Assembly (NCBI RefSeq): GCF_023330665.1
Contig: NZ_CP097127.1
Location: 186,001-250,000, forward strand
Reading direction: 5' to 3'
Length of the DNA stretch: 64,000 nucleotides
Source of the DNA: Conexibacter sp. S30A1
GTDB lineage: Bacteria; Actinomycetota; Thermoleophilia; Solirubrobacterales; Solirubrobacteraceae
Shown here: one piece after another, positions 50,282 to 64,000 of the stretch
Numbering within the stretch: the stretch's first letter is position 1
Layout: every line of letters begins with the position of its first letter
Notes under the pieces: model-generated
What the model was told of the DNA's origin: nothing
Databases searched by the model: none
What the model saw: only the letters and a program-made list of their open reading frames with translations
Translations under genes and position numbers: made by a program

Positions 50282-51201
50282 GATCGGCTCAGCACCTGCG
50301 CGAGTGCGGCCCCGATCTCGGGGTTGGCGAAGCGGAAGCCGAGTTCGGTGAGGCGGCGAGGTACGGCCCTTTGGCCGGTGGTGACGATCACCGACATCTC
50401 GCCGTAGAGGAGCTTGAGGGCGAGCGTGGGAACGGGCAGCAGGGCTGGACGGTGAAGGACGCGGCCCAGCGCACGAGAGAACTCGGCGTTGTCGACAGGG
50501 TGCGGCGCGGTCACGTTCAGCGGTCCGGTCGCGCCGTCGTCCTCGATGCAGTGCACCATGGCCGCCGCCACGTCGTCGATGTGAACCCAGGGAACGTACT
50601 GGCGGCCACCGGCGACTGGGCCTCCGATGCCGGCGCGGAAGAATGGCAGCATCTTGGCCAGCGCGCCTCCGCTCCGGGAAAGCACGACTCCGGTACGCAT
50701 AACCGCCACACGGCAATGCTCCTCGGCTCGGCGCGCCTCCTGCTCCCAGTCGCGAACGACACGCGCCAGGAAGTCGTCACCTGGGTTCGCCTGCTCGTCG
50801 AGCTCCTCGCCGCCTCGCGGACCGTAGTAGCCGGTCGCTGACTGAGAGATGAGCACGGTTGGACGACGGTCCCCAGGCAGCTGACCGATGGCCTCCGTGA
50901 GCATCCGGGTGGAGAGCACACGAGAGTCGCGAATCCGCTGCTTCACCGGCTCTGTCCAGCGCTGCGAGATCGGCTCGCCGAGCAGGTGGATGACCGCTTG
51001 GGCGCCGTCGAGCGCGTCCAGGGGCGCCGTTTGCGCCTGTGGTTCTGGCCAGGCTTGCACCCGGACGCCCTGCGGCAGGCGAGAGGTGGCGGTGGCGGGG
51101 TCACGGGACAGAGCGACGGGTTGGTCGCCTCGCTCAAGCAGGTGCTTGCAGACCGCATTTCCGATGGTGCCGGTCGCGCCGGTGACAACTATCTTCGCCA
51201 T
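50278..51201 (-). CDS. TIGR01777-family NAD-dependent epimerase/dehydratase
   Basis: The 307-residue SDR-type protein has IVVTGATGTIGNAVCKHLLERGD, HLLGEPISQRW (family hallmark), ISQSATGYYGPRGGEELDE with the catalytic Tyr, PWVHIDDVAAAM, and a C-terminal DUF1731 domain (RPALLPVPTLALKLLYGEMS, RRLTELGFRF). Substrate unknown. It is the first gene of a short minus-strand operon with the SRPBCC gene and divergent from the MerR gene, 21 bp away. Confidence 0.92.
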   Translation of the reverse strand: MAKIVVTGATGTIGNAVCKHLLERGDQPVALSRDPATATSRLPQGVRVQAWPEPQAQTAPLDALDGAQAVIHLLGEPISQRWTEPVKQRIRDSRVLSTRMLTEAIGQLPGDRRPTVLISQSATGYYGPRGGEELDEQANPGDDFLARVVRDWEQEARRAEEHCRVAVMRTGVVLSRSGGALAKMLPFFRAGIGGPVAGGRQYVPWVHIDDVAAAMVHCIEDDGATGPLNVTAPHPVDNAEFSRALGRVLHRPALLPVPTLALKLLYGEMSVIVTTGQRAVPRRLTELGFRFANPEIGAALAQVLSRS

Positions 51202-51206
51202 GTCGA

Positions 51207-51220
51207 TGTAATCTTATACA
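51207..51220. promoter_or_regulatory. Overlapping divergent -10s and TGTA-N6-TACA operator
   Basis: The 21-bp spacer contains plus-strand TAATCT (51209-51214, 8 bp before the MerR TTG) and minus-strand TAAGAT (51217-51212, 10 bp before the epimerase ATG). Both lie inside the inverted repeat TGTA-ATCTTA-TACA, a plausible site for the MerR protein itself. Confidence 0.5.
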
Positions 51221-51222
51221 CC

Positions 51223-52059
51223 TTGTCCAGGTTTGAGCTCAGCATCGGTGAAATCGTCGAGCGCACGGGCGTGAGCGAGCCCACACTGCGAGTGTGGGAG
51301 CGACGTTACGGCTTCCCGACCCCGCACCGCACGGCCAGCGGCCACCGTCGCTACTCGACGGCCCAGGCCGATGCCGTTTCACGCGTGCTGGCCCTGCGGG
51401 ACACGGGCATGACGATCTCTGCGGCGATTGCGCGCGTCGAGCGGCCACCGGCCTCCGACAGCGTCTCGCTGTTTGCGACACTCCGCGAGCTTGAGGGCGA
51501 ACGGGCCGCGCGGGCGGTGCGTAAGCCGGCGCTGATCGCGCTCAGCCACGCGATCGAAGATGAGGCGCTGGCCTGCGCCCAGGCACGGCTTGCTCTGGGC
51601 TGCTTCCAGCGGGAGGGTTTTTATCGGCGTTCGCAGGCGCGGTGGCGCGAGCTCGCCTCCACGGCACCGGTGGCCGCGGTGCTGGCGGACTTCGAGCGGC
51701 TGCGCACGGACGATGCTCACCCGGTCGAGGTCCCGTTCGGCCCGAACGCGCAGCTCACCCGTGAGTGGGCGATCGTGCTGCACGGCGGCCGCTGCTCGGT
51801 GTGCATGGTTGCCCGTGAGCTGGCATCCTCGAATGTTGATGCCTCAAGCCGCGAGCGCAGCTTCGAAGCCCTCTGGAGCGTCGACCCTGACGCGGTTGAC
51901 GCGGTGGCTCGCGCCTGCCTGTCGGTGATGGCCGATCGGCTCCCCGACGTCGTCGCGCGCGCGGAGGAGGAGCTCGCGGCCGGATCAGTCGCGACCCCGG
52001 CTGAGTTCATGCGGCTCGCCACCGCGATCATCGACAGGACGCTGGCGGGACTCACATGA
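51223..52059 (+). CDS. MerR-family regulator with DICT sensory domain
   Basis: The 278-residue protein starts with a MerR helix-turn-helix (FELSIGEIVERTGVSEPTLRVWERRYGFP, GHRRYS) and continues into a DICT domain: LIALSHAIEDEALACAQARLALGCFQREGFY, RWRELASTAPVAAVLADF and REWAIVLHGGRCSVCMVARE. DICT is named from diguanylate cyclases and two-component systems and is linked to light/stress sensing in cyanobacteria and actinobacteria. TTG 51223 is the only suitable start: later GTGs would cut the HTH. Confidence 0.88.
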   Translation: MSRFELSIGEIVERTGVSEPTLRVWERRYGFPTPHRTASGHRRYSTAQADAVSRVLALRDTGMTISAAIARVERPPASDSVSLFATLRELEGERAARAVRKPALIALSHAIEDEALACAQARLALGCFQREGFYRRSQARWRELASTAPVAAVLADFERLRTDDAHPVEVPFGPNAQLTREWAIVLHGGRCSVCMVARELASSNVDASSRERSFEALWSVDPDAVDAVARACLSVMADRLPDVVARAEEELAAGSVATPAEFMRLATAIIDRTLAGLT

Positions 52060-52083
52060 TCCAGGGAGGCGCTGGTTTGCGTA
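52057..52083 (+). promoter_or_regulatory. Candidate ECF promoter of the COG2907-DUF1365-cfa operon
   Basis: TGATCC (52057-52062), 17 bp, CGTA (52080-52083), exactly 10 bp to ATG. AGGAGG follows as ribosome binding site. This mirrors the promoter before the ECF sigma gene, both extending to TGATCCAG. Confidence 0.5.
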
Positions 52084-52093
52084 GGAGGAGACG

Positions 52094-53338
52094 ATGAGAG
52101 TCGCCGTCATCGGTACGGGCATATCAGGGCTGACCGCCGCATACCTTCTGCAGCGCAGCCACGACGTCACCGTCTTCGAGTCCGAAGCCCGGATCGGCGG
52201 GCACACCCACACGGTCAGCTTCAACGAGGGCGCGCGTGATGTCCAGCTGGACACCGGGTTCATCGTCTTCAACGACCGCAACTACCCGAACTTCGAGCGT
52301 CTGATGAGGCGCATAGGTGTGGCCTGGCAGCCATCGGATATGAGCTTCAGTGTCAGCGACGGACGTGACTTCGAGTACGCGAGCACCTCCCTGGCGGGGG
52401 TCTTTGCCAACCCACGGCATCTGCTCAGTCCGGGCTTTTTGCGCATGCTGGGCGAGATCCCCCGTTTTCAGCACGCCGCCAGGGAGCTGACAACCGGTGG
52501 CGATCAGCAGGTATCGCTTCGTGGTTGGCTGGCCGAGCACGGCTTCTCGAGCAGCTTTGTCGAGCGCCTGCTGGTCCCGCAGGTCTCCGCCGTCTGGTCA
52601 GCGGACCCGCGGCAGCTGTGGAGCATGCCGGCGGCGTTTGTCGCCCGCTTCTTCGAGAACCACGGGATGCTCAGCCTACGCGGGCGCCCGCGCTGGCGCA
52701 CGATCGTCGGTGGGTCACGCAACTACGTGGAACGGCTGACGAGCGATTACCGTGAGCGAATTCACGTAAACGCGCCGGTCGAAGCGATCACGCGCACGCC
52801 CGAGGCGGTTGAGGTCAGGGTGCGCGGTCAGGAGCCACAGCGCTTTGACCAGGTGGTCGTCGCGACCCACTCCGACCAGGCGCTTGAGCTCTTGGCGGAC
52901 GCCTCCGGGCGCGAGCGCGAGATTCTCTCGCTGATCCCGTACCAGGAGAATGAAGCTGTTTTGCACACCGATCTGTCGCTGCTGCCGCGCCGCCGCAGTG
53001 CCTGGGCGAGCTGGAATTACCACCTCACCGACGAGCCGCGGGAGCGAACGACCGTGACCTATCACCTCAACCGCCTGCAGCAGTTGGACGACGAGCGGCA
53101 GTTCTGCGTCACGCTCAACCTCAGCGAGCGCATCGACCCGGAGCTCGTGATCGAGCGGATCGCCTACTCGCACCCTGTCTACACGCCTGAGGGAGTCGCG
53201 GCGCAGGCGCGGTTCGAGGAGATCTCCGGTCGGGCCGGCCGGACCCACTTCTGCGGCGCCTACTGGGGATGGGGGTTTCACGAGGATGGTGTGCGCAGCG
53301 CCCTGCGTGTGGCGGAGAGCTTCGGGGTGAAGCTGTGA
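52094..53338 (+). CDS. COG2907-type FAD-dependent oxidoreductase
   Basis: The 414-residue flavoprotein starts VAVIGTGISGLTAAYLLQRSHDVTVFE with the FAD motif, followed by the family segments RIGGHTHTV, DTGFIVFNDRNYPNF and VPQVSAVWS, and ends with FCGAYWGWGFHEDG. In proteobacteria this family sits with cfa-like methyltransferases and light/singlet-oxygen regulators, and a relative has been tied to furan fatty acid formation in Rhodobacter. A desaturase or dehydrogenase role on membrane acyl chains is therefore plausible. Confidence 0.88.
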   Translation: MRVAVIGTGISGLTAAYLLQRSHDVTVFESEARIGGHTHTVSFNEGARDVQLDTGFIVFNDRNYPNFERLMRRIGVAWQPSDMSFSVSDGRDFEYASTSLAGVFANPRHLLSPGFLRMLGEIPRFQHAARELTTGGDQQVSLRGWLAEHGFSSSFVERLLVPQVSAVWSADPRQLWSMPAAFVARFFENHGMLSLRGRPRWRTIVGGSRNYVERLTSDYRERIHVNAPVEAITRTPEAVEVRVRGQEPQRFDQVVVATHSDQALELLADASGREREILSLIPYQENEAVLHTDLSLLPRRRSAWASWNYHLTDEPRERTTVTYHLNRLQQLDDERQFCVTLNLSERIDPELVIERIAYSHPVYTPEGVAAQARFEEISGRAGRTHFCGAYWGWGFHEDGVRSALRVAESFGVKL

Positions 53339-54063
53339 GCACGGCGAGCTGTCTCTACATGGGCACGCTGGTGCACCGCCGGCTCGAGCCCGAGCGCAGC
53401 TTTCGGCACCGGTTGGCGCTGGCCTACATCGACCTGGACGAGCTTCCGCGTCTGCTCGACGGCAGGCTCCTCGAGCCCGGGGTCGGACTGATGCGCTTCC
53501 GCCGCTCGGACTACCACGGCGACGCCGATCAGGACCTCAGGCGGGCGGTTGCCGACAGCGTGGAGCGGGCGATCGGCCGGCGTCCAACGGGGCCGATCCG
53601 GCTGCTGACGCAGCTGCGCTCGCTCGGACACTGCTTCAACCCTGTCAGCTTTTACTACTGCTTCGATCCTGCCGGCAGGGATCTGGATGCGGTCCTCGTC
53701 GAGGTCACCAACACGCCGTGGGGCGAGCGCCAGGCGTACGTGCTGGACGGTGCCGCTGGCACTTTCGAGAAGCTCATGCACGTCTCGCCGTTTCAGCCGA
53801 TGGATCAGACCTACCACTGTCGTGTCGAGGCGCCGGGTGAGCGCCTGGGCGTAACGATCGAGAACCACGACCAGCATCGGCGGGTCTTCAGTGCAGCGCT
53901 GCGCATGGACCGGGTCGAAATGACCCCCGGCAGTGTCAGACGCGTGGTTGCGCGTTACCCGTTTGCGACGGTCCGGGTGCTCGCTTTGATCTACGGGCAT
54001 GCGCTCGGGCTGAAGCTCGCGGGCGTGCGCATCCATCCGCATCCGCGGGAGCTGCCGCGATGA
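53335..54063 (+). CDS. DUF1365 protein
   Basis: The 242-residue protein matches DUF1365: YMGTLVHRRLEPERSFRHRL near the start, LLTQLRSLGHCFNPVSFYYCFD, EVTNTPWGERQAYVL, KLMHVSPFQPMDQTYH and a C-terminal IHPHP. Its biochemical role is unknown, but it is almost always next to COG2907 and cfa genes. GTG 53335 overlaps the upstream stop, and its stop overlaps cfa, so the three are one translational unit. Confidence 0.9.
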   Translation: MSTASCLYMGTLVHRRLEPERSFRHRLALAYIDLDELPRLLDGRLLEPGVGLMRFRRSDYHGDADQDLRRAVADSVERAIGRRPTGPIRLLTQLRSLGHCFNPVSFYYCFDPAGRDLDAVLVEVTNTPWGERQAYVLDGAAGTFEKLMHVSPFQPMDQTYHCRVEAPGERLGVTIENHDQHRRVFSAALRMDRVEMTPGSVRRVVARYPFATVRVLALIYGHALGLKLAGVRIHPHPRELPR

Positions 54064-55301
54064 ACGGCAACTCCGCCCGGGCGCTGGTCCGTGTTGCGCT
54101 TGCGCGTTTGCGGGCCGGCACGCTGACGATTGTCGAGCCCGACGGGACACGCACCTGCTTTGGCTCCGGCTCACCCAGCTCCGAGCTGCGGATGCACTCA
54201 GACCGAGTCTGGTCCTGCTTCATGCACGGCAGTCTGGGGTTGGCTGAGGCCTACGCGGAAGGGCTGTGGGACTCTCCTGACCTGGTGGCGCTCGTACGTC
54301 TCGGTGCCCGCGTGATGCCGACGCTCGACCGGCTGCGGACGCTGGGCACGCCACTCTCGCGGCCGATGCAGCTGGCACGCGCCGTCGTGAGGCCGCACGG
54401 GCGCGAGCAGCGGCGCCGCGACGTGGGCGCGCACTACGACCTCGGCAACGACCTCTTCTCGCTGATGCTGGACCCAACGATGACCTATTCCTGTGCGCTG
54501 TTCGCGCAGCCCGGCATGTCGCTGGAGGAGGCGCAGCTGGCCAAGCTCGAGCGGGTCTGCACGATGCTCGATCTGCACCGCGGCGACCGCGTGCTGGAGA
54601 TCGGCAGCGGCTGGGGTTCGTTTGCCCTGCACGCTGCTGCCACCCGCGGCTGTCACGTCACCACCACGACGATCTCTGCCGAGCAGCACCGCCACGTGCG
54701 TAACCGGGTGGAGAGCGAGGGGCTGGGCGAGCTGATCACCGTGTTGGACCGTGACTACCGGGATCTGCGCGGCCGTTACGACAAGCTCGTCTCGATCGAG
54801 ATGATCGAGGCCGTGGGTTGGCGTGGGTTTGCCCCGTTCCTGCGCCGCTGCGCCCAGTTGCTTGAAGTGGACGGAGCGATGCTGCTGCAGGCGATCACGA
54901 TCGATGACCGCGCCTATCAGGTCGAGAAGGCGTCGCGCTCGTTCATCAAGGAGTACATCTTCCCCGGCGGCGCCCTGCCCTCCCTCTCGGTTCTGGCGGG
55001 CGCGCTGGGTCGCCACACCGATCTACGGGTCCTCGACCTTGAGGATCTCACCGACCACTACCCCGAGACGCTGCGGCGCTGGCGCGCCCGCTTTGAGGAG
55101 CACACCGCTGCGCTTGCGCAGCGCGGCTACGACGAGCGCTTCTGCCGCATCTGGGACCTCTACCTGGCCTATTGCGAGGCCGGGTTCGTTGAGCGACGGA
55201 TCGGCGACATCCAGGTTCTCCTGGGCAAGCCAGGGTTCCGTGCGGGGGTTGCCAGTAGCGGCGGCGCTCCCGGACTGGGCGCGCTCGAGCGGGCCCTGTG
55301 A
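54060..55301 (+). CDS. Cyclopropane-fatty-acid synthase-like lipid methyltransferase
   Basis: The 413-residue SAM enzyme has VGAHYDLGNDLFSLMLDPTMTYSCALF, motif I VLEIGSGWGSFALHAA, SIEMIEAVGWRGFAPFL, FIKEYIFPGGALPSL and the catalytic YCEAGF. It adds a methylene or methyl group to unsaturated acyl chains of membrane phospholipids. Whether the product is a cyclopropane or a precursor of furan fatty acid cannot be decided from sequence; the flavoprotein and DUF1365 partners favour a multi-step modification. Confidence 0.93.
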   Translation: MNGNSARALVRVALARLRAGTLTIVEPDGTRTCFGSGSPSSELRMHSDRVWSCFMHGSLGLAEAYAEGLWDSPDLVALVRLGARVMPTLDRLRTLGTPLSRPMQLARAVVRPHGREQRRRDVGAHYDLGNDLFSLMLDPTMTYSCALFAQPGMSLEEAQLAKLERVCTMLDLHRGDRVLEIGSGWGSFALHAAATRGCHVTTTTISAEQHRHVRNRVESEGLGELITVLDRDYRDLRGRYDKLVSIEMIEAVGWRGFAPFLRRCAQLLEVDGAMLLQAITIDDRAYQVEKASRSFIKEYIFPGGALPSLSVLAGALGRHTDLRVLDLEDLTDHYPETLRRWRARFEEHTAALAQRGYDERFCRIWDLYLAYCEAGFVERRIGDIQVLLGKPGFRAGVASSGGAPGLGALERAL

Positions 55302-55322
55302 GGCAGGAGCCGGGCGGCGTGC

Positions 55323-56720
55323 TCAGCCGCTACGGGCCCGTTCGTAACGCGCGATCGCCTCGCGTCGGGCCTGGGCGTGGTCGAGCACCGGCACCGGGTA
55401 ATCGGCTCCGATGATGCACCCCGCGTGGCGCTGGACATCTGCTGGCATCGTCCATGGCTCGGCCAGGTAGGCGTCGGGAACCGAACGCAGCTCTGGCACG
55501 TGGCGGCGCACGTAGTGGCCTTCAGGGTCGAACTTGAGCTGTTGCAGCGTCGGGTTGAACATCCGCCGCGAAGGCGGCTGCGGGTCGACTCCGACCGATG
55601 CGATCCACTGCCAGTTGCCGTTGTTGTTGGCCTCGTCGCCGTCGAGCAGCGTCCGCATGAACCAGCGCTCGCCCCAGCGCCAGTCGATTCCCATGTCCTT
55701 CACCAGGAAGGAGCCGACGACCAGGCGGGCACGGTTGTGCATGTGGCCGGTGTGCAGCAGCTCGCGCATCGCGGCGTCGACCAGCGGATAGCCGGTACGT
55801 CCCTCACGCCAGGTGTCAAACAGCGGCATCGACCGGTTCCACTCGATGCGGCCGCGCAGCTGCGGCTGTTGCTCGGCGCGGGCGTTGCCGGGGTGGTGGA
55901 GCAGCACGTGGGCGTAGAAGTCACGCCAGCACAGCTGCCGCCTGGCCGCCTCGGCATCGTCGCTGTCGGGCAGGAGGCTCTCCAGCTCGCGGGCCGATAC
56001 ACAGCCGAAGTGAAGGTAGGCGGAGAGGCCGGAGGCGTGCGGCTGGCCGAGGTCGTCGTGGTGCTCGTGGTAGCCGTCGAGGCCTTCGCCGGCGGCGAAC
56101 GCCAGCATGCGTTCGCGTGCCGCGTGCTCACCGGGCGCAAACGGGGCTTGCGGTGGCAGGTCGCCGAGCTCGGGCAGCGGGCCGGATGCGGGCGTGGGCG
56201 GCGGTGCCGGCAGGCTCCGCGGCGCGGGGTGCACAGCTCGGCGTGGCAGCGTCAGCCAGCGCCTGTAAAAAGGGGTGAAGACGGTGTAGGGGGTTCCGCT
56301 GCCGCTCGTGACCGCGGCGAGGTCGTCGGCCACGAAGGTTCCGGGACCAAGGGTGAGGCTGCTGCCGCCGGCTGCGAGCGCGTGGGCGACCGCGCGGTCG
56401 CGCCGCCGCGCGAACGGGCTGACATCGGCGGCGGCGTAGACCGCCTCGGCCGCCAGCTGGCGTGCCAGGTCGGGGATGGCTCGCTCGGGAGGGCGGTCGA
56501 CAAACACGAGCCGCGAGCCGGCAGCGCGTAGGTTGCGGTCGAGTTCGACCAGGCAGCCGCGCATGAAGGCTGCGCGTGGTGCGGAGCGGTGGCGGCCCGT
56601 AATCAGCCGCTCGTCCAGGCAGAACACGGGCACCACCAGTTCGTGCTCGGCCAGGGCGCGCGTCAACGTGGGGTTGTCATGGAGTCTCAGGTCGCGCCTG
56701 AACCAGACGATCGCGGTCAC
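55323..56720 (-). CDS. phr: Deoxyribodipyrimidine photolyase (class I)
   Basis: The 465-residue protein has the antenna-binding domain (IVWFRRDLRLHDNPTL, VVPVFCLDERL) and the FAD domain: SGLSAYLHFGCVSARE, QLCWRDFYAHVL, GRTGYPLVDAAMRELLHTG, HNRARLVVGSFLVKD and the NNNGNWQWIASVGVDPQP region with the electron-transfer tryptophan. It repairs UV dimers with light. GTG start; TAGGGT lies 8 bp upstream. It converges on the cfa operon, and I see no ECF-type promoter copy before it. Confidence 0.94.
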   Translation of the reverse strand: MTAIVWFRRDLRLHDNPTLTRALAEHELVVPVFCLDERLITGRHRSAPRAAFMRGCLVELDRNLRAAGSRLVFVDRPPERAIPDLARQLAAEAVYAAADVSPFARRRDRAVAHALAAGGSSLTLGPGTFVADDLAAVTSGSGTPYTVFTPFYRRWLTLPRRAVHPAPRSLPAPPPTPASGPLPELGDLPPQAPFAPGEHAARERMLAFAAGEGLDGYHEHHDDLGQPHASGLSAYLHFGCVSARELESLLPDSDDAEAARRQLCWRDFYAHVLLHHPGNARAEQQPQLRGRIEWNRSMPLFDTWREGRTGYPLVDAAMRELLHTGHMHNRARLVVGSFLVKDMGIDWRWGERWFMRTLLDGDEANNNGNWQWIASVGVDPQPPSRRMFNPTLQQLKFDPEGHYVRRHVPELRSVPDAYLAEPWTMPADVQRHAGCIIGADYPVPVLDHAQARREAIARYERARSG

Positions 56721-56906: not shown

Positions 56907-57131
56907 ATGCAAAGCGAGATGCTGTCCGTGATCGGCTCTTGGGGCCGCGCCTGCCTGGATCGTCCCAGGCGCTGGCTCAGAGAGCTTGGCTTACAGGAGA
57001 GTGGCCAGGGATTGCTCGAATACGGGCTGGTGCTCCTGCTCGTCTCGATCGTGGCGGTGGTGGCACTGGCGGCGATCGGTCACCACGTGACCGACTTGGT
57101 CAGCACCACCGCCCGCCGCGTCCACCCCTAG
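56907..57131 (+). CDS. Flp/Fap-type (type IVb) pilin
   Basis: The 74-residue protein has a short basic leader and the Flp signature SGQGLLEYGLVLLLVSIVAVVALAAIG (Gly before the cleavage region, conserved E-Y at +5/+6 type spacing), a single hydrophobic helix and a short tail. Flp pilins are exported by Tad systems. No tad genes are nearby, so it is an orphan in this window. ATG 56907 is assumed; GTG 56901 and ATG 56919 are alternatives. Confidence 0.85.
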   Translation: MQSEMLSVIGSWGRACLDRPRRWLRELGLQESGQGLLEYGLVLLLVSIVAVVALAAIGHHVTDLVSTTARRVHP

Positions 57132-57134
57132 ACT

Positions 57135-57156
57135 GCGCGCCGGCTCACCGGTGCGC
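57135..57156. terminator. Hairpin after the Flp pilin gene
   Basis: GCGCGCCGG pairs with CCGGTGCGC (9 bp, one G-T) around CTCA, starting 3 bp past the pilin stop. No T-run. Likely terminator between the pilin and the convergent dsrE2-like gene. Confidence 0.4.
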
Positions 57157-57197
57157 GGCGCGTTGAGGAGGCGGTCCAGAAGCGCGTAAGAAAGGCC

Positions 57198-57785
57198 TCA
57201 GATGAACAGGCTGATGGCGGAGCGCTGCATCCGCTCCAGCGCGGTCGCGGCGCCGGCCGGCTCATCCAAGCCGGCGATCAGATCGGCGTCCTTGAGACCC
57301 ATCAGGTCCATGGTCATCCGGCAGGGCCACAGCTTGACGTCCATGTCCTGGGCCATCTCGATCAACTCCTCGGGGGTGGCCACGCCGTTCTTGTCCGCGA
57401 GCTTTCGCATCATCATCGGGCCCATGCCGGCCATGTTCAGCTTTGACAGCGCGGCGTGCTCGGCGCTACCGCGATTCATCAACGACAGTGCGCGTGTCAT
57501 CCAATTGGTTCCGGTCATCCGCCGCTCCTCGCGCACGAGCGGGAAGAGGCCCCAGAAGGTGAAGAAAACGGCCACATCCATCCCGCTGGCCGCGGCCGTC
57601 GTGGCGAGGATCGTCGTGGGCCAGATCCGATCCAGGTCGCCTCCCCAGGCAATGAAGGTGGCCATGTTCGGATCGCGCGTCTCGTGCTCGCGTGCGAGGA
57701 TGAGCTCGGTTACGAAGGCGCGCAGGTCCTCCGGGCTCATATCCCCGACCGTGGTGGCCTCGCTGGTGATGGTTGTTGGTTGCAT
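57198..57785 (-). CDS. DsrE2-like (DsrE/F/H family) sulfur-relay protein
   Basis: The 195-residue protein resembles the DsrE2/peroxiredoxin-like DsrE subfamily: FIAWGGDLDRIWPTTILATTAAASGMDVAVFFTFWGLF, a Met-rich middle (GMGPMMMRKLADKNG) and the conserved sulfur-carrier Cys in VKLWPCRMTMDLMG (C155). Such proteins pass persulfide sulfur with TusA. AGAGGAGG precedes the ATG. It is in a minus-strand unit behind arsR, divergent from tusA. Confidence 0.88.
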   Translation of the reverse strand: MQPTTITSEATTVGDMSPEDLRAFVTELILAREHETRDPNMATFIAWGGDLDRIWPTTILATTAAASGMDVAVFFTFWGLFPLVREERRMTGTNWMTRALSLMNRGSAEHAALSKLNMAGMGPMMMRKLADKNGVATPEELIEMAQDMDVKLWPCRMTMDLMGLKDADLIAGLDEPAGAATALERMQRSAISLFI

Positions 57786-57813
57786 TTAACCCCTCCTCTG
57801 GGTCGACCTGCTG

Positions 57814-58173
57814 CTAAAGGTCCGGCATCGCCGCCTCGAGCTCAGCGCCCCATTTGAGCCAATGGTCGTTGAGCGACTTGCAGACGACGCTGCAAACCTC
57901 CTCGAGTGACGGGTCAACGATCCGGTAGTAAGCGGTGGTACCGTCGCGTCGCCGAGCGACCGTGTGGTGCGCTCGCAACATCGACAGCTGTTTGGACACA
58001 GTCGCGTAGGAGCTCTCGATCCGCGCAACGATCTCGCCAACGCTCAGCTCGCCACTCGCGTGAAGCTCGTTGAGGATGCGCAGCCTGGTCGGGTCGCTGA
58101 GCAACCTGAAGCGGTCGGCCACGCGTTCGACCAGCGCTGGATCCAGGGCGGGAAGCATGCCGTTTCTGGGCAT
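57814..58173 (-). CDS. ArsR-type repressor (sHdrR-like)
   Basis: The 119-residue protein is a winged helix: ADRFRLLSDPTRLRILNELHASGELSVGEIVARIESSYATVSKQLSMLRAHHTVARRRDGTTAYYRI. Two cysteines, C94 and C98 (C-x3-C), lie in the C-terminal helix and could sense persulfides, though not at the spacing I recall for SqrR/BigR. ArsR repressors control shdr operons in Hyphomicrobium, and this gene is divergent from the TusA-Hdr unit, fitting that role. Confidence 0.88.
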   Translation of the reverse strand: MPRNGMLPALDPALVERVADRFRLLSDPTRLRILNELHASGELSVGEIVARIESSYATVSKQLSMLRAHHTVARRRDGTTAYYRIVDPSLEEVCSVVCKSLNDHWLKWGAELEAAMPDL

Positions 58174-58184
58174 AGACCCCGGCT

Positions 58185-58212
58185 AGGTTAGAGCATTTGC
58201 GAAACTGTGCAA
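58185..58212 (-). promoter_or_regulatory. Promoter of the arsR-dsrE2 unit
   Basis: Minus strand: TTGCAC (58212-58207), 16 bp, TAACCT (58190-58185), with the ATG 11 bp beyond. An imperfect inverted repeat ATTTGC-N8-GCAAGT straddles the -35, a possible ArsR operator. Confidence 0.55.
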
Positions 58213-58277
58213 GTAGTCGAGTAACGGCCCAGTTTGTTCACTTCCGCCGCGCCCACAGTTTTCCTATTACGCCAAAC

Positions 58278-58306
58278 TTGACAGGCACCGATGGTGAGCC
58301 TATGCT
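58278..58306 (+). promoter_or_regulatory. Strong promoter of the tusA-dsrE-hdr operon
   Basis: Consensus TTGACA (58278-58283), ideal 17-bp spacer, TATGCT (58301-58306). It is the best housekeeping promoter in the window. AGTTT-N12-AAACT (58256-58277) abuts the -35 and may bind the ArsR repressor. Confidence 0.75.
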
Positions 58307-58339
58307 CGGCCCATCAACCAACGAGGGAGGGTTGTGGAA

Positions 58340-58582
58340 ATGTGTGCGGATGTGGCGACGCCCACGCAGACGCTGGACGTCAAGGGTAAAGCGTGCCCGA
58401 TCCCGGTTGTAAGGACCGCGAAGCTGATGAAGGAGATGACCCCCGGCGATGTGCTGGAGGTCTTCGCCACCGACCCCGGTGTCGAGCCAGACATGCACGC
58501 TTGGGCGAGGCAGACCGGGAACGAGCTGATCTCCATCGACCAGACCGCGGGTGCTTTCCGTGTCCTGCTGCGCAAGCGCTGA
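58340..58582 (+). CDS. tusA: TusA-family sulfurtransferase
   Basis: The 80-residue protein has the TusA signature: DVKGKACPIPVVRTAKLMKEM with the sulfur-carrying Cys in CPxP (C19), then GDVLEVFATDPG and a final strand FRVLLRK. It carries persulfide sulfur to DsrE proteins and the Hdr-like complex. GGGAGG 9 bp before ATG 58340 favours this start over GTG 58334. Confidence 0.95.
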   Translation: MCADVATPTQTLDVKGKACPIPVVRTAKLMKEMTPGDVLEVFATDPGVEPDMHAWARQTGNELISIDQTAGAFRVLLRKR

Positions 58583-58591
58583 GGTGCGTCG

Positions 58592-58966
58592 ATGAGCGAC
58601 GAGTCCTCGGTCGTCTACGTGGTGACGCACGGTGTGGATTATCCCGAGCGGTGTGCCACCCCGTTTTTCCTGGCTGCTGCTGCCGCCGCCATGGACGCCG
58701 AGGTCTCGATTTACTTCACAATGCGCGGACCCGAGCTGCTCAAGAAGGACGTAGGCGATCAGATCGGCCCCAAGGGTGAACAGGGGGAGCGACTGAGCTA
58801 CTTCATCGAACAGGCGCTCGACTGCGGTGTCCAGCTGCTGATCTGTCAGCCGTCGCTTGACCTCAACGACCTGACGCTCGATGACCTGATCGAGCCGGTG
58901 CGGATGATCGGCGGCGCGGCGTTCAACGACATCGCCATGCGAGCTGATGCAGTGATCACGTTCTGA
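58592..58966 (+). CDS. DsrE-family sulfur carrier
   Basis: The 124-residue protein has the DsrE fold: VVYVVTHGVDYPERCATPFFLAAAAAAMDAEVSIYFTMRGPELL, a GEQGERLSYFIEQALDCGVQL helix and the conserved Cys in LLICQPSLDLNDL (C85), then DLIEPVRMIGGA. It is likely a DsrE3-type partner that accepts sulfur from TusA. One base overlaps the next gene. Confidence 0.9.
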   Translation: MSDESSVVYVVTHGVDYPERCATPFFLAAAAAAMDAEVSIYFTMRGPELLKKDVGDQIGPKGEQGERLSYFIEQALDCGVQLLICQPSLDLNDLTLDDLIEPVRMIGGAAFNDIAMRADAVITF

Positions 58967-59697
58967 TGTCGGCCAGCGCGCACCTCACCCCGACGCGTGC
59001 CGACTCGGCCGCCTACAAGCTCGGCACCACATACCCAGACGTGCCGCTCGAAGAGAAGCAGCGCCTGTTCGATGAGGTCAAGACGGATGAGCGCTTCCAC
59101 GACTACCTCTATGGCTGCTACGAGTGCGGGATCTGCGTGGCCGCCTGCCCGTCGGCGCGCTATTACGACTTTTCGCCGCGCCGGATCGCCCAGGCTGCTG
59201 CCCGAGAGGACGTCGAGCTCGTCTACCAGCAGATGCAGGAGGACATCTGGGACTGCTCGCAGTGCTTCTCCTGTCTGCGTTGCCCGCGTGGTAACAACCC
59301 TGGCGGGATCATCACGCTGATGCGTGAGGTCGCGGTCAACAATGGCCTCGAGTCCGCCAAGCAGGCGCTGCGCGGTTACACGCGGATCATCTACAAGATC
59401 ATGTCGACCGGCACCCAGGTCTCTCCCGACATGCTCCAGGCCGATGCGTTCCCGGACTGGGGGCCAAGTGTTGCGCTGGTCTCCGAGAAGCTCGACCTCT
59501 GGCGGCGCGCGTTGCCGCCTGAGACGCACCACACCACCACCACAGGGTGGCAGATATCGACCAAGACGCTCGTCGAGCTTTACCTGATCTGGCACAAAAC
59601 GGGCGCGTTGGCGATGATCGCCGAGCTCGCGCGAGCTTGCACAGCCTGTTGGAGGAGGTCATGGAGGACTTGCTGGACGAAGAGGGTTACGAGCTGA
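58966..59697 (+). CDS. sHdrC1-like iron-sulfur protein, frameshifted C-terminus
   Basis: The protein has two [4Fe-4S] motifs, CYECGICVAACP (C51, C54, C57, C61) and CSQCFSCLRCP (C97-C106), then SPRRIAQAA, NPGGIITLMREVAVNNG and a helical region. It should pass electrons to HdrB1/HdrA. After about residue 222 the frame turns to ACTACWRRSWRTCW, while the +2 frame reads HSLLEEVMEDLLDEEGYELS up to a stop at 59702: a one-base deletion (or sequencing error) near 59635. The encoded C-terminus is thus probably not native. Confidence 0.88.
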   Translation: MSASAHLTPTRADSAAYKLGTTYPDVPLEEKQRLFDEVKTDERFHDYLYGCYECGICVAACPSARYYDFSPRRIAQAAAREDVELVYQQMQEDIWDCSQCFSCLRCPRGNNPGGIITLMREVAVNNGLESAKQALRGYTRIIYKIMSTGTQVSPDMLQADAFPDWGPSVALVSEKLDLWRRALPPETHHTTTTGWQISTKTLVELYLIWHKTGALAMIAELARACTACWRRSWRTCWTKRVTS

Positions 59698-59717
59698 GTT
59701 AGCCAGAGGAGCATCAG

Positions 59718-60920
59718 ATGACCATTCCGGTAGAGAAGGTCGCCGGTCCACGCCGGCAGAACAAGGCCGAGTTCCGATGGAGCGACGAGCACGCGCCAGC
59801 CGACTTTCATGAGCGGCTGTTCGAGCTCGAACAGAAGGGTGAGCTTGTGGTCCAGCGCGTTGACACCGAGCACATCGAGGTGCCGGTGAAGTACGGACGG
59901 ACCAAGAAGGTGCCGATCGGTCACACCTGGCACCACAAGAGCTGTGGCCAGTGCGGGCACATCCCCGGCTACTCCACGTCGATCTTCTGGGTCAACCGCA
60001 AGCTCGGGATCGAGTATGAGGATCCGACTGACCAGACCTCGTGCACGGCGTGGAACTACTATGCGTCGGCAACCTCGAATGCCGCTGCTCAGGCGGCGGT
60101 GGCCGTGCGCAACTTTGCCGCCGCCTACGAGACCGGCCGGTTCCCGATCATTCACTGCGGAACGTCCTTCGGCCACTACAAGGAGGTCCGCCAGGAGTTG
60201 CTCGCGCACGATCACCTCAGGGATGAGGTGCGACGCGTGATGGAGTCACTGGGTAAGCCCCTCGTGCTTCCCGAGGAGATGGTGCATTACTCCGAATGGT
60301 TTTACGCGATGCGGCATGAGATCGCCAAGCACCAGGTGCGCGACTTTTCCAACATTGCCGTCACCGTGCATCCGGCCTGCCACTACTACAAGCTTGTCGA
60401 AGGCGACGCCATCTATGACCCCGAGGTGTATGGCGGCCAGCGGACAGCGATCGTGTCGGAGGTCGCCCAGGCGCTCGGTGCGGAGGTGCGTGACTACTCA
60501 ACCTGGTTTGACTGCTGTGGCTTTGGGTTTCGTCACATTCTGGTCACGCGTGACTTCACGCGCTCGTTCGCGACGCAGCGCAAGATCAAACGCATGAAGG
60601 AGGAGGCTGATCCGGACGTCACCCTGACCCACGACACCGGCTGCGTGACGACGCTCGACAAGAGCCAGTTTGCCGCCAAGGCGCAGGACCCCAACTTCGC
60701 AACGATCCCGGTGATGTCAGAGGCTCAGTTCGCGGCGCTGGCTATGGGTGCGCATCCCTACCTCGTCTGCCAGTTGCACTGGCACGCGGCGGACTACAAG
60801 CCGCTGCTCGAGAAGATGGGCATCGACCATGAGAAGGCATGGGCGCAGTTCGAGGAGGCGACGGCGCGGCTCGAGCGAGGCGAGCAGCAGTATCTGACGT
60901 GGGAGGATGCGGATGTCTGA
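59718..60920 (+). CDS. sHdrB1-like CCG-domain protein
   Basis: The 400-residue protein is longer than typical HdrB (about 300) by an N-terminal extension of roughly 70 residues. A first cysteine set (C76, C79, C109) is followed by an intact CCG motif: HPACHYYKL (C221), FDCCGFGF (C266-C267), DTGC (C309). In HdrB, CCG cysteines hold noncubane [4Fe-4S] clusters. AGAGGAGC lies before the ATG. It overlaps hdrA by 8 bp. Confidence 0.9.
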   Translation: MTIPVEKVAGPRRQNKAEFRWSDEHAPADFHERLFELEQKGELVVQRVDTEHIEVPVKYGRTKKVPIGHTWHHKSCGQCGHIPGYSTSIFWVNRKLGIEYEDPTDQTSCTAWNYYASATSNAAAQAAVAVRNFAAAYETGRFPIIHCGTSFGHYKEVRQELLAHDHLRDEVRRVMESLGKPLVLPEEMVHYSEWFYAMRHEIAKHQVRDFSNIAVTVHPACHYYKLVEGDAIYDPEVYGGQRTAIVSEVAQALGAEVRDYSTWFDCCGFGFRHILVTRDFTRSFATQRKIKRMKEEADPDVTLTHDTGCVTTLDKSQFAAKAQDPNFATIPVMSEAQFAALAMGAHPYLVCQLHWHAADYKPLLEKMGIDHEKAWAQFEEATARLERGEQQYLTWEDADV

Positions 60921-61962
60921 CAGAGTCGTTGTGATCGGCGGCGGTCCGGGCGGCATCGAGGCAGCCCGGCAGGTCGCCGACCTTGGGCTGCCGGCGGTGC
61001 TGGTTGAGCAGCGTGAGCGGCTCGGTGGGACTCCCATCTTCGCCAACTACGCCGCGCTGACGCCCTACTTCGCCAACGCGGAGGAGGCCATGGACGCGAT
61101 GATCGCCGAGCTGGCCCAGCGCGGGCGCGCCGAGGTTCGCACCTCCACGACCGTCACCGGGCTCAGCGGCGAGGCGGGCGCGTTCACGGTTGAGCTGTCC
61201 ACTGGCGAGCGCCTCGACGCTGGCGCGGTGATCGTCGCGACCGGCTTTGATCACTTCGACCCGGGTCGGGAGCGCCAGATCTACAACTACTACCAGTATC
61301 CGGACGTGCTCGCACTGCAGGACCTCGAGGCACAGCTCAAGGAGCATAAGGTTGTTGTCCCGTCCACCGGCAGGCCGCCCGCGAGCATCTGCTGGGTTCA
61401 GTGCGTCGGCTCCCGCGACCGCAACATCGGCAATGAGTGGTGCTCCAAGGTCTGTTGCGGCATCGCCTCCAAGCAGGCGATCGAGGTCCGCAAGCTCTCA
61501 CCCGAGACCCGGGCCTACATCTTCTACATCGACATGCGGATGTACGGGTACTGGGAGACGCAGCTCTACTGGCCGGCTCAGGAGCAGTATCACGTGCAGT
61601 ACATCAAGGGCATCATCACCGAGGTGCTCGAGCGCGGAGACCGACTGATCGTGCGTGGCGAGGACACCACCATGGGCCGGCCGATGGAGGTGCCGATGGA
61701 TATGGTCATCCTCTCGGTCGGCATGGAACCGTCCGCCGGCACCAAGGCGATGAGCGACGTCCTCGGGATCGAGCGCAACCGCCATGGCTTCATCGAGGTC
61801 ATCAACCCACCGCTCGACACCGTGACCACGAGTCGGCGCGGCATCTTTGCCTGTGGCGCCGCGCTCGGCCCAGCTGACCTTGAGGACACCATCTCATCAG
61901 CCGGCGCCGCAGCCGGCAAGGCGGTTGCGCTGGTGCGCCGAGACAACCTCGCGGTCGCCTGA
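60913..61962 (+). CDS. sHdrA-like flavoprotein
   Basis: The 349-residue protein, sHdrA size and much shorter than methanogen HdrA, has VVVIGGGPGGIEAARQVADLG, VIVATGFDHFDP and a second nucleotide/FAD region (VILSVGMEP, GIFACGAALGPADLEDTISSAGAAAG). A cysteine cluster for an iron-sulfur centre is present (C160, C164, C177, C181, C182). It binds FAD and is the electron hub of the complex. ATG 60913 is 6 bp after GGGAGG. Confidence 0.92.
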   Translation: MSDRVVVIGGGPGGIEAARQVADLGLPAVLVEQRERLGGTPIFANYAALTPYFANAEEAMDAMIAELAQRGRAEVRTSTTVTGLSGEAGAFTVELSTGERLDAGAVIVATGFDHFDPGRERQIYNYYQYPDVLALQDLEAQLKEHKVVVPSTGRPPASICWVQCVGSRDRNIGNEWCSKVCCGIASKQAIEVRKLSPETRAYIFYIDMRMYGYWETQLYWPAQEQYHVQYIKGIITEVLERGDRLIVRGEDTTMGRPMEVPMDMVILSVGMEPSAGTKAMSDVLGIERNRHGFIEVINPPLDTVTTSRRGIFACGAALGPADLEDTISSAGAAAGKAVALVRRDNLAVA

Positions 61963-61963
61963 G

Positions 61964-62731
61964 ATGGCCGGCGGCGCGGGGCCGGTGGCGGTCGGAGAGA
62001 TCCCAGAGGTCGATGTACCCACAGCCAAGGAGCTGATTGAGCAGATCCACGAGCACATGAGCGTGGCCGCGCTCGCGGCGATCGTCAGCGAGCTGGAGGC
62101 GAAGGTCGCGGCGATGCGGACGTCCCTGGAGCCTCCGGTTCCGGGAGCAGCTGGCCTGCGCCAGGCGCTCGAATGGACCTTCGTCGGACGCCGGCGCGGC
62201 AGCGCCGTCCTCGGCATCCGCTCAGACGCTGAGCTCTCCAGCTGGGTCTCCGGTCTGTTTGACTCCTCGGCGCCCCTCGCCGCCCGTTTTGACCGCTTCT
62301 GTGCGGCCGCCGGCCCGCTGGCCGGCGGCCAGGCGGCTGAACTGGCCTCTGAGCTGCTGCACTTCACCGCACCCGATCGCCACTGGCTGTGGTCGCGCTG
62401 GATGTGGAGCAACGAGAGCCGCACTGGTGCGCTGCCCCTATTGATCGGCGACGATTTCGAGCTCGACGGCGGGTCGCTGGGGGAGACCTATGAGCGGGTC
62501 GGCCGGGCGTACGCGATGCTCGACGACTCGCCCGAGGCGTCCGCGTTCCGCCCTGCTGGCGGGGGCAGCCTCGGCACCGACCTGCTGCTCGCCTGCACCT
62601 ACGCGGTCTACATGCGCACGGTGCTCGGTCTCAAGATGACCCAGGAGTTCAACGCGCTGGTGCCGGCGATGCCACAACTTGTGCGCCGCCTCCTGGGGGT
62701 TCACTTCAAAGCGCTTCAGGAGGTTCGATAG
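61964..62731 (+). CDS. sHdr-associated 'Hyp' protein
   Basis: The 255-residue soluble protein has no motif I recognise, but occupies the position between hdrA and hdrC2 where sHdr clusters carry a conserved hypothetical gene. It contains a helix-rich N-terminus (IHEHMSVAALAAIVSELEAKVAAM), a Trp-rich HWLWSRWMW segment and LACTYAVYMRTVLGLKM. No cysteine other than isolated ones, so no cluster binding. It starts 1 bp after hdrA. A 24-bp palindrome identical to one after uvrB is at 62306. Confidence 0.75.
   Translation: MAGGAGPVAVGEIPEVDVPTAKELIEQIHEHMSVAALAAIVSELEAKVAAMRTSLEPPVPGAAGLRQALEWTFVGRRRGSAVLGIRSDAELSSWVSGLFDSSAPLAARFDRFCAAAGPLAGGQAAELASELLHFTAPDRHWLWSRWMWSNESRTGALPLLIGDDFELDGGSLGETYERVGRAYAMLDDSPEASAFRPAGGGSLGTDLLLACTYAVYMRTVLGLKMTQEFNALVPAMPQLVRRLLGVHFKALQEVR
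62306..62329. repeat. Second copy of the 24-bp palindrome
   Basis: Identical to 35000-35023: arms GCCGCCGGCC, loop CGCT; here the stem extends by one more pair. It encodes AAGPLAGGQ in the Hyp protein. Confidence 0.9.
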
Positions 62732-62734
62732 CTC

Positions 62735-64000
62735 ATGCCCATCGGAGGTCAGAAGCAGCCGCCGGTCGTCAGGGAACTCGCCTCGGCGGTGCTGGACGGT
62801 GTGGAACTCTCCGCGGAGTGGAACCGTCAGTTCGAGACGCGGGTGATCGAGGATTACGACTCCTCGCCGCTATTCGAGCTCGCGGCGCTCACCGAGGCCG
62901 AGTCGATCGAGTGGTGCTACGGATGTGGCCGCTGCGTGCCCGTCTGCCCGGTCGACGTGGTTGGCGAGTACGGGCCGCGGAAGGTGCACCGCAAGCTGCA
63001 GACGGGCATCAACCTGCTCGACGATCCTGACCTCTGGCTGTGCACCACCTGCGGCAACTGCCTGCGAGTCTGTCCCAAGCAGGTAGACATGATCAAGATC
63101 ATGCCTGCGGCCCGCGAGGCGGCGATGGCGCAGGGCAAGGAGGTCCCGGCCGAGCTTCAGGGCGTGTTCGAGTCGACCTTCAAGTACGGCAATGCGCTGG
63201 GTCAGTCGCCGCGCAAGCGCCCCGCGTGGACAAAGGGGGCTGGGGTCCCGGTACGTGACCTCACCAAGGAGCCGGGGCGGGTTGAGTACCTGCTCTACGT
63301 CGAGGACTATTGGGCCTACCACCCCCGCGGGAACGATGCCGCCCAGGCGTTTGCGCGAATCATGCACCGGCTCGGCATCGACTACGGGATTCTCGGTCAC
63401 GAGGAGAAGACGCTCGGTGACTCGCAGCGTTTGGCGGGCGAGAAGGGCCTGTTTGAGATGCTGATGGAGCAGGTGGTGGAGACGCTTGACCGGTTTGAGT
63501 TCGGCGCGATCGTCACGCCCGACCCCCACGGCTTCAACGCGCTGGCAAAGATCTATCCAAAGTACGGTCACGAGTTCAACGTGCTGCACTACACGCAGCT
63601 GTTGGCGCCGCGAATCGGTGAGCTGGAGTTCACCACACCGCTTGATATGCGGGTCACCTTTCACGATCCCTGCTACCTCGGCCGCCACAACGGCGAGTAC
63701 GACGCGCCGCGTCAGATCCTCGAGGCATTGCCAGGGTTGGAGCTGGTCGAGATGATGCGCTGCCGCGAGAACGGCTACTGCTGCGGCGGCGGTGGCGGCG
63801 GGATGTGGCTCGACGGCCACACCGTCAACCACACCAGTGAGCGCCTCTCTGAGCGGCGCGTGCGTGAAGCGGCAGAGACCGGCGCCAACGTGCTCGCCGT
63901 CTGCTGCCCCTATGAGGTGTCCCGCTTCGAGGACGGGGTCAAGTCGACCGGACTTGACGGCCAGCTCAAGGTCCGGGACCTGGCCGAGCTGGTGGATCAG
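62735..64000 (+). CDS. sHdrC2/B2- or HdrD-like iron-sulfur protein (cut by window end)
   Basis: The visible 422 residues combine an HdrC-like part (CYGCGRCVPVCP, C61-C71; CTTCGNCLRVCP, C103-C113) and an HdrB-like part. The second CCG repeat is intact (HDPCYLG C313, MRCRENGYCCGGG C343/C349-C350, AVCCPYE). The first, at 185-275, keeps the fold pattern (LGIDYGILGHEEKTLGDSQRLAGE) but has no cysteines. AGGAGG lies 11 bp before the ATG. No stop before 64000. Confidence 0.88.
   Translation, partial: MPIGGQKQPPVVRELASAVLDGVELSAEWNRQFETRVIEDYDSSPLFELAALTEAESIEWCYGCGRCVPVCPVDVVGEYGPRKVHRKLQTGINLLDDPDLWLCTTCGNCLRVCPKQVDMIKIMPAAREAAMAQGKEVPAELQGVFESTFKYGNALGQSPRKRPAWTKGAGVPVRDLTKEPGRVEYLLYVEDYWAYHPRGNDAAQAFARIMHRLGIDYGILGHEEKTLGDSQRLAGEKGLFEMLMEQVVETLDRFEFGAIVTPDPHGFNALAKIYPKYGHEFNVLHYTQLLAPRIGELEFTTPLDMRVTFHDPCYLGRHNGEYDAPRQILEALPGLELVEMMRCRENGYCCGGGGGGMWLDGHTVNHTSERLSERRVREAAETGANVLAVCCPYEVSRFEDGVKSTGLDGQLKVRDLAELVDQ

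What the first reader, a model, noticed from the sequence alone, without database searches (positions are those of the whole stretch)
57198..64000. sHdr-type sulfur oxidation cluster in an actinobacterial genome
The order DsrE2-like, ArsR | TusA, DsrE, HdrC1-, HdrB1-, HdrA-like, Hyp, HdrC2/B2-like matches the shdrC1B1A-hyp-C2B2 layout known from Hyphomicrobium, Acidithiobacillus and Aquifex. HdrA has sHdr length (349 aa), and TusA/DsrE carriers plus an ArsR regulator are present. It implies cytoplasmic oxidation of persulfide sulfur in a lineage not usually thought of as sulfur-oxidising. The C2/B2 functions seem merged in one protein.
Basis: partly seen in the sequence, partly recalled or inferred. 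Interest (0 to 1): 0.85.

Follow-up and report, generated by a model that had tools for sequence, protein, structure and literature searches.

The report
Sulfur-oxidation operon in an actinobacterium
An actinobacterium of the order Solirubrobacterales carries a complete operon of the already described type II sHdr-lipoate system, predicted to oxidise protein-bound sulfur to sulfite inside the cell; it is a good example in a little-noticed lineage, not a new kind of system.

Summary
The window ends inside an apparent 21-gene operon that starts tusA, dsrE, C1, B1, A, H, B3, with dsrE2 and arsR divergent. The layout is not the Hyphomicrobium/Aquifex (type I) one but the published type II one: C1-B1-A-H-B3 plus etfAB, C2 and B2 being fused as B3. 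HdrA is closest to structure 6tjr and falls in an actinobacterial type II clade. Key cysteines and lipoyl lysines are invariant or nearly so in relatives. Such clusters in Actinobacteria were reported in 2018 (PMC6067878). Added here: the Solirubrobacterales host, patchy presence (6 of 232 genomes of the order, own included), an empty site in a relative, and an FCSD/SQR-like flavoprotein and a Rieske protein ending the operon. No SoxB or RuBisCO was found. Function is inferred; nothing was measured.

The parts
57198..57785 (-). DsrE2-like sulfurtransferase, 195 aa
   Evidence: Pfam DrsE_2 3.2e-42; NCBIfam DsrE2 83.9 bits, below its cut-off of 210; its Cys155 is kept in 32 of 32 aligned relatives
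57814..58173 (-). ArsR-family regulator, 119 aa, with a CX3C pair near the C-terminus
   Evidence: NCBIfam HTH_metalloreg 80.5 bits, cut-off 55; CX3C seen in 10 of 31 ArsR-like stretches, 11 of which end before residue 98 and cannot show it; it is in all 6 stretches from the four near-kin genomes
58174..58333 (.). 160 bp divergent promoter region; TTGACA-17-TATGCT at 58278-58306 on +
   Evidence: 1 site found in 57000-58500, mean 0.2 in shuffles; a consensus match only
58334..58582 (+). tusA, sulfur carrier, 82 aa, CPIP motif
   Evidence: Pfam TusA 3.2e-22; Cys21 in 69 of 72 relatives
58592..58966 (+). dsrE-family sulfurtransferase, 124 aa
   Evidence: Pfam DsrE 1.6e-14; Cys85 in 73 of 73 relatives
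58966..59697 (+). shdrC1, two 4Fe-4S sites; last ~22 residues out of frame through a missing base near 59660
   Evidence: HdrC models up to 77.1 bits, below cut-off; eight cluster cysteines in 76 of 76 relatives; frameshift
59718..60920 (+). shdrB1, proposed catalytic subunit, 400 aa
   Evidence: HdrB model NF041780 131.4 bits, below its cut-off of 450; Pfam CCG 6e-12; eight cysteines in 80 of 80 relatives
60907..61962 (+). shdrA, Fe-S flavoprotein, 351 aa
   Evidence: best solved structure 6tjr 6.5e-89, methanogen-type HdrA 1.7e-54; Cys166, 179, 183 and 184 in 78 of 78 relatives; tree
61964..62731 (+). shdrH ('Hyp'), 255 aa, all-helical model, no Pfam family
   Evidence: no Pfam family, no NCBIfam family; 68 of 73 relatives aligned; model mean pLDDT 89.4; no PDB fold match at E<=0.001
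62735..64000 (+). shdrB3 (C2-B2 fusion), 431 aa, ends at 64030 outside the window. The operon continues (window coordinates extended past 64000): lpl 64033-65052, lbpA 65049-65495, lipS1 65492-66445, lpl 66442-67587, lipS2 67584-68732, etfB 68739-69515, etfA 69526-70485, EMO/EtfD-like 70482-72557, 153-aa protein 72554-73015, small Cys/His-rich ORF 73017-73322, lbpA 73319-73759, lbpA 73761-74216, Rieske 74216-74887, FCSD/SQR-like flavoprotein 74884-76017

Best explanation
This is a complete type II sHdr-LbpA operon. Proposed working: sulfane sulfur (for example from SQR and rhodanese, or thiosulfate) is loaded on TusA, DsrE and DsrE2 and handed to the sHdr complex (C1, B1, A, H, B3), which oxidises it to sulfite. 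Lipoylated LbpA proteins, made in place by the operon's own ligases and LipS1/LipS2, take part as sulfur or electron carriers. EtfBA and the EMO/EtfD-like protein pass electrons to menaquinone. The ArsR protein is a likely local repressor. Shown here: gene content, order, conserved cofactor residues, relationship. Inferred: direction of reaction, substrate, electron path and regulation.
For: Defining set shdrC1B1AHB3 + etfAB in one cluster (definition in PMC11582611, passages; genes). LipS1 over the curated cut-off, 231.2 against 230. Three LbpA with invariant lipoyl lysine: 53/53, 53/53, 51/51 relatives, distinct from the genome's own GcvH at C1:553111. HdrA best matches 6tjr, 6.5e-89. HdrA tree: window inside a 44-row clade at 99*, 42 rows labelled Actinomycetota and the other two the window and G169. 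B1-A-H-B3 in 69 of 69, EtfB and EtfA in 42 of 43 and an LbpA in 43 of 43 relatives with enough flank. The same operon in three further genomes: G169, Conexibacter sp. DBS9H8 (G134) and G136 (the end of G136's by DNA alignment). Neighbouring genes of the 21 overlap or lie within 20 bases of each other. EMO/EtfD-like protein best matches 9ojn 'Iron-sulfur-binding reductase', 1.4e-90. Sulfide-handling genes elsewhere in the genome: rhodanese, SQR-like (255.7 bits, cut-off 525), MBL-rhodanese fusion.
Against: No growth or enzyme data. C1 carries an apparent frameshift in its last ~22 residues. No SoxB (no control genome exceeded that cut-off, so this search had no positive control) and no RuBisCO in a genome rated 93.8% complete, so the sulfur input and any autotrophy are open. 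The one sulfite-oxidase-fold protein scores far below every curated cut-off (SoxC 63.5/420, MsrP 63.4/207, SorA 62.8/600), so the fate of sulfite is unknown. LipS2 is below its cut-off, 167.4/270. Presence is patchy: 5 of 28 genomes of the genus, 6 of 232 of the order, own included. The deep part of the HdrA tree joins long branches.
Confidence: 0.86

Rival explanations
1. The operon serves sulfide or persulfide detoxification, or oxidation of organic sulfur, and not energy conservation.
For: No RuBisCO, no SoxB; a sulfide-handling locus exists elsewhere in the genome; Gordonia rhizosphera and Amycolatopsis acididurans carry the same core.
Against: EtfBA and an EMO/EtfD-like protein are built into the operon, which suggests capture of electrons. 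Other carbon-fixation routes were not searched.
Confidence: 0.35
2. A non-sulfur Hdr-type electron-transfer complex (methanogen-like or acyl-CoA/Etf-linked) that only resembles sHdr.
For: HdrA, HdrB and HdrC curated models match, all below their cut-offs; Etf genes are linked.
Against: HdrA is sHdr-length and closest to 6tjr; TusA, DsrE, LbpA, LipS1 and Lpl genes are in the operon, and TusA, DsrE and LbpA keep their key residues in relatives.
Confidence: 0.04
3. A decaying operon: the C1 frameshift marks loss of function in this strain.
For: One base missing against four relatives; patchy distribution in the genus, 5 of 28 genomes; empty site in G137.
Against: The other 20 genes are open as read, key residues of the proteins counted are kept, and the shift spares both 4Fe-4S sites of C1. 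A single-base difference may be a sequencing error.
Confidence: 0.06

Closest known systems
Type II sHdr-LbpA system (PMC11582611, passages; Group III of PMC6067878, section 5)
   Same: C1-B1-A-H-B3 with etfAB, several lbpA, ligases and radical-SAM lipoyl synthases in one cluster; Group III was reported from Actinobacteria and Firmicutes
   Different: Host in Solirubrobacterales; a Rieske protein and an FCSD/SQR-like flavoprotein close the operon (the flavoprotein was found in none of the 80 scanned loci, many of which end before that point, but in G169 and G134). The order B3, lipoate block, etfB is shared with 18 of 43 relatives
Type I sHdr of Hyphomicrobium denitrificans
   Same: sHdrA, C1, B1, H, TusA/DsrE carriers, LbpA and lipoate assembly by LipS1/LipS2
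   Different: Separate C2 and B2 there, fused B3 here; etfAB is not in the type I definition; no SoxB found here; the ArsR regulator here lacks the sHdrR cysteine pair
Methanogen HdrABC (e.g. 8rvu, 5odc)
   Same: HdrA core and HdrB by sequence
   Different: HdrA here is about half the length (351 against 643-671 aa) and has no Fer4 domain; accompanied by sulfur carriers and lipoate proteins
EMO/EtfD-type Fe-S reductase (these names are recalled; match to 9ojn)
   Same: Two 4Fe-4S sites and a CCG domain in one chain, next to etfBA; best stretch 350-668 matches 9ojn 403-733
   Different: 691 aa here against 1042 aa; sits in a sulfur operon

Membership tests
Type II sHdr | shdrC1, B1, A, H and B3 in one syntenic cluster | tested here: met
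Type II sHdr | etfAB in the same cluster | tested here: met
   Pfam ETF and ETF_alpha; 6 and 10 base gaps
Type II sHdr | lbpA genes with the lipoyl lysine | tested here: met
   three GCV_H proteins; lysine 53/53, 53/53, 51/51
Type II sHdr | own lipoate ligase and LipS1/LipS2 | tested here: met
   two LplA-B_cat proteins; LipS1 just over cut-off, LipS2 167.4 of 270 bits, below it
Type II sHdr | HdrA goes with sHdr | tested here: met
   tree (quick method; 78 type II rows split off at 97*; long branches make the deep order unsure)
Type II sHdr | HdrB branches with sHdr | not tested
   rows were collected but no HdrB tree was built
Type II sHdr | oxidises sulfane sulfur to sulfite | not testable with these tools
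   needs growth or enzyme assays
   one fused gene at 62735-64030
sHdrR/SoxR sulfane-sulfur repressor | two conserved cysteines equivalent to Cys50 and Cys116 (PMC12423496, passages) | tested here: not met
   the window ArsR has only two cysteines, a CX3C near the C-terminus; judged by reading, no alignment to sHdrR or structure was made
Methanogen-type Hdr | HdrA over the curated NCBIfam cut-off | tested here: not met
   207.2 of 1400 and 228.9 of 1100 bits; these cut-offs are set for proteins twice as long

The most novel reading that the evidence does not exclude
The operon is a self-contained sulfide-to-sulfite respiratory module for an apparently heterotrophic actinobacterium without SoxB: the FCSD/SQR-like flavoprotein and Rieske protein at its end feed sulfane sulfur and electrons, TusA/DsrE load the type II complex, and LbpA-Etf-EMO carries electrons to menaquinone. 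That would answer how sulfur enters the type II pathway, whose genomes lack SoxT importers according to PMC11582611 (SoxT was not searched here).
Probability: 0.25. Interest if true: 0.55.

Novelty: new member of a known kind. Interest (0 to 1): 0.36.

Why it matters
I know of no type II sHdr system studied at the bench (recalled, not searched for as such). A complete operon in a single-contig genome, with a same-genus relative that has a finished chromosome (Conexibacter sp. DBS9H8), gives a tractable set of parts: sHdrH, the LbpAs and the Etf-EMO link. It also widens the list of actinobacteria that may oxidise sulfur.

Tried and rejected
Type I layout: rejected, C2 and B2 are fused. Methanogen-type Hdr: rejected. 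sHdrR identity of the ArsR protein: rejected on the cysteines. Sox pathway input: SoxB not found (no positive control; other sox genes and soxT not searched). Calvin-cycle autotrophy: RuBisCO not found. A fold clue for sHdrH: Foldseek against PDB gave nothing at E<=0.001. More Hdr sequences for the tree were sought on plasmids with HdrA; only a Picosynechococcus and an Ilyobacter record came back. A second AlphaFold job was not used.

Literature: the searches listed no paper whose title or shown abstract reports sHdr in Solirubrobacterales or Thermoleophilia. Of these listings I saw only titles and abstract starts, except passages of PMC11582611, PMC12345210, PMC10332631, PMC12423496, PMC4842900 and PMC6067878 (of the last, section 5 in full). 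One search showed 25 of 77 papers. PMC4842900 holds all three terms, but the passages shown put hdrABC in other bins than the Solirubrobacterales one. The supplement of PMC11582611, which screened GTDB genomes, could not be read, so this host may be listed there.
Full report
Place and host. The window is bases 186001-250000 of a single 3,458,291-base contig, rated 93.8% complete. The closest relatives of its B1 protein are an Actinomycetes MAG (96%), a Solirubrobacterales MAG (95%) and Conexibacter sp. DBS9H8 (93%). NCBI puts Conexibacter in Solirubrobacterales, Thermoleophilia.

What is in the window. dsrE2 and arsR point away from tusA across a 160 bp gap with one sigma-70-like site. HdrA matches the solved structure 6tjr at 6.5e-89 over 338 residues; that 6tjr is the HdrA-like protein of Hyphomicrobium denitrificans is recalled (the table calls it a flavoprotein domain protein). 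The best methanogen-type HdrA reaches 1.7e-54, mainly over query residues 102-344.

What lies beyond. I fetched the following stretch of the contig. The operon goes on without a break: lipoate ligase, lbpA, lipS1, second ligase, lipS2, etfB, etfA, a 691-aa protein with 4Fe-4S and CCG domains (hydrophobic N-terminal third, by reading), a 153-aa protein without a Pfam family, a small Cys/His-rich ORF, two more lbpA, a Rieske protein and a flavoprotein; a MOSC gene follows on the other strand. The 21 genes overlap by up to 14 bases or lie at most 20 bases apart (three ends typed there were off by 2-3 bases and are mended in 'parts'). The 691-aa protein matches 9ojn, 'Iron-sulfur-binding reductase', at 1.4e-90. 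The flavoprotein matches FCSD flavin subunits at 2.4e-8 and a type III SQR model with 48 bits of a 525-bit cut-off, so only the superfamily is safe.

Which kind of system. PMC11582611 (passages) defines type I as shdrC1B1AHC2B2 and type II as shdrC1B1AHB3 with etfAB in one cluster. The window fits type II. PMC6067878 (section 5 read) already described Hdr-like clusters with two or three lbpA genes and etfBA in Actinobacteria and Firmicutes as Group III.

Relatives. One scan of genome contigs with B1 confirmed 199 loci and kept the best 80, from Actinomycetota, Chloroflexota, Rokubacteria, Neomarinimicrobiota, Acidobacteriota and others. Of the 69 with at least 3.5 kb downstream, 69 have B1-A-H-B3. 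Of the 66 with at least 2.5 kb upstream, 62 have a tusA before B1 and 56 have DsrE-C1-B1 adjacent; of the other 10, seven carry an lbpA-like gene between DsrE and C1, two have C1 elsewhere and one has DsrE elsewhere. Of the 43 with at least 9.9 kb downstream, 42 hold etfB and etfA and 43 an lbpA; 18 have the window's order B3-lpl-lbpA-lipS1-lpl-lipS2-etfB and 22 have B3-etfB-etfA-EMO. G169 (another genus of the family) and Conexibacter sp. DBS9H8 match all 22 query proteins from dsrE2 to the flavoprotein in the same order; G136 matches through the Rieske protein by protein search and to window 75986 by DNA alignment. The small Cys/His-rich ORF was not in the query set. In the scanned loci the Rieske query hit 6 of 80 and the flavoprotein none, but many loci end before that point.

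Catalytic residues, counts over relatives whose match covers at least 60% of the query: B1 eight cysteines 80/80 each, a ninth 70/80; HdrA Cys166, 179, 183, 184 78/78, Cys162 66/78; C1 eight cysteines 76/76; B3 cysteines 57 to 69 of 69; EMO-like 30 to 32 of 33; TusA Cys21 69/72; DsrE Cys85 73/73; DsrE2 Cys155 32/32; lipoyl lysines 53/53, 53/53, 51/51. The genome also has an ordinary GcvH at C1:553111, followed by GcvP-like sequence by reading.

Tree. HdrA, 84 rows (76 of 80 loci, window, G169, two paralogues, Picosynechococcus plasmid, Ilyobacter, 6tjr, 8rvv), quick method: the window sits with its kin at 97* to 99*, inside a 44-row clade at 99* (42 rows labelled Actinomycetota, plus the window and G169). 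The actinobacterial rows are not one clade: a second group of 10 rows (8 labelled) stands apart at 100*. The 78 type II rows are split from 6tjr, the paralogues and the outgroups at 97*; the fork that joins 6tjr to them and leaves out the Picosynechococcus row and the Hdr outgroups has 93, unstarred. The outgroup branches are long and the tool warns about joins among them. No HdrB tree was built.

Distribution and gain or loss. B1 is found in 6 of 232 genomes of the order, in 5 of 28 of the genus (in G130 in two pieces on two contigs), and in 5 of 396 of a phylum sample, one of these at 41% identity; own genome included each time. In G137, which has no B1 match, the flanks align at 71% and 75%, but the 19.3 kb between them (window 56739-76022) are replaced by 2.8 kb. 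In G129 and G130 the operon lies beside the photolyase gene as in the window. In G136 the right flank is the window's, but the photolyase flank is on another contig that goes on past the site. In G134 the two flanking genes and the operon lie in three distant places. This shows movement, gain or loss; it does not say which.

Metabolic setting. No RuBisCO and no SoxB were found (the RuBisCO search had positive controls, the SoxB search none over its cut-off). At C1:373611-377448 there are a rhodanese, an SQR-like flavoprotein (255.7 bits; cut-off 525) and an MBL-rhodanese fusion. One sulfite-oxidase-fold protein is below every cut-off.

sHdrH. The 'Hyp' protein has no Pfam family, eight invariant columns and no invariant cysteine in 69 sequences. 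AlphaFold gives a confident all-helical model, mean pLDDT 89.4, pTM 0.88; Foldseek finds no PDB match at E<=0.001. This leaves a possibly unseen fold, not a proof of one. PMC11582611 calls sHdrH a protein of unknown function (passages).

Noticed in passing
window 59655-59697: One base missing against four relatives puts the last ~22 residues of HdrC1 out of frame; sequencing error or real.
   Followed up: partly
window 57814-58173: The ArsR protein has a CX3C pair kept in near kin, not the Cys50/Cys116 pair of sHdrR; possibly another sensing mode.
   Followed up: partly
window 61964-62731: sHdrH: confident all-helical model without a PDB match at E<=0.001.
   Followed up: yes
L124 (G137 C43:17001-34000): Empty site: a same-genus genome lacks the operon; a tRNA-Gln and, by reading only, enoyl-CoA-hydratase-like, TauE-like and ferritin-like genes lie in the stretch that takes its place.
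   Followed up: partly
L116 7611-11448: Rhodanese, SQR-like and MBL-rhodanese fusion side by side: a sulfide-handling locus far from the operon.
   Followed up: partly
L017 and L080, upstream of the sHdr cluster: A second HdrA-like (33%) and B3-like (54-55%) pair precedes the sHdr cluster; paralogous set of unknown role.
   Followed up: no
L122 3056-8796 (Picosynechococcus sp. PCC 7003 plasmid): Annotated order Fe-S, HdrB-related, FAD oxidoreductase (HdrA-like), Fe-S, HdrB family, FAD oxidoreductase: looks like a C1-B1-A-C2-B2 set without H on a cyanobacterial plasmid.
   Followed up: no
L006 14216-14887: Rieske protein with an unassigned ~120-residue N-terminal part; relatives of it follow lbpA and dsrE2 in Ferrithrix and four other loci.
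   Followed up: no
window 50278-56720: Block with MerR-like regulator, amine-oxidase-like, cyclopropane-synthase-like and photolyase-like genes (names by reading); aligns at DNA level with G136 and G137; perhaps a light-response cluster.
   Followed up: no
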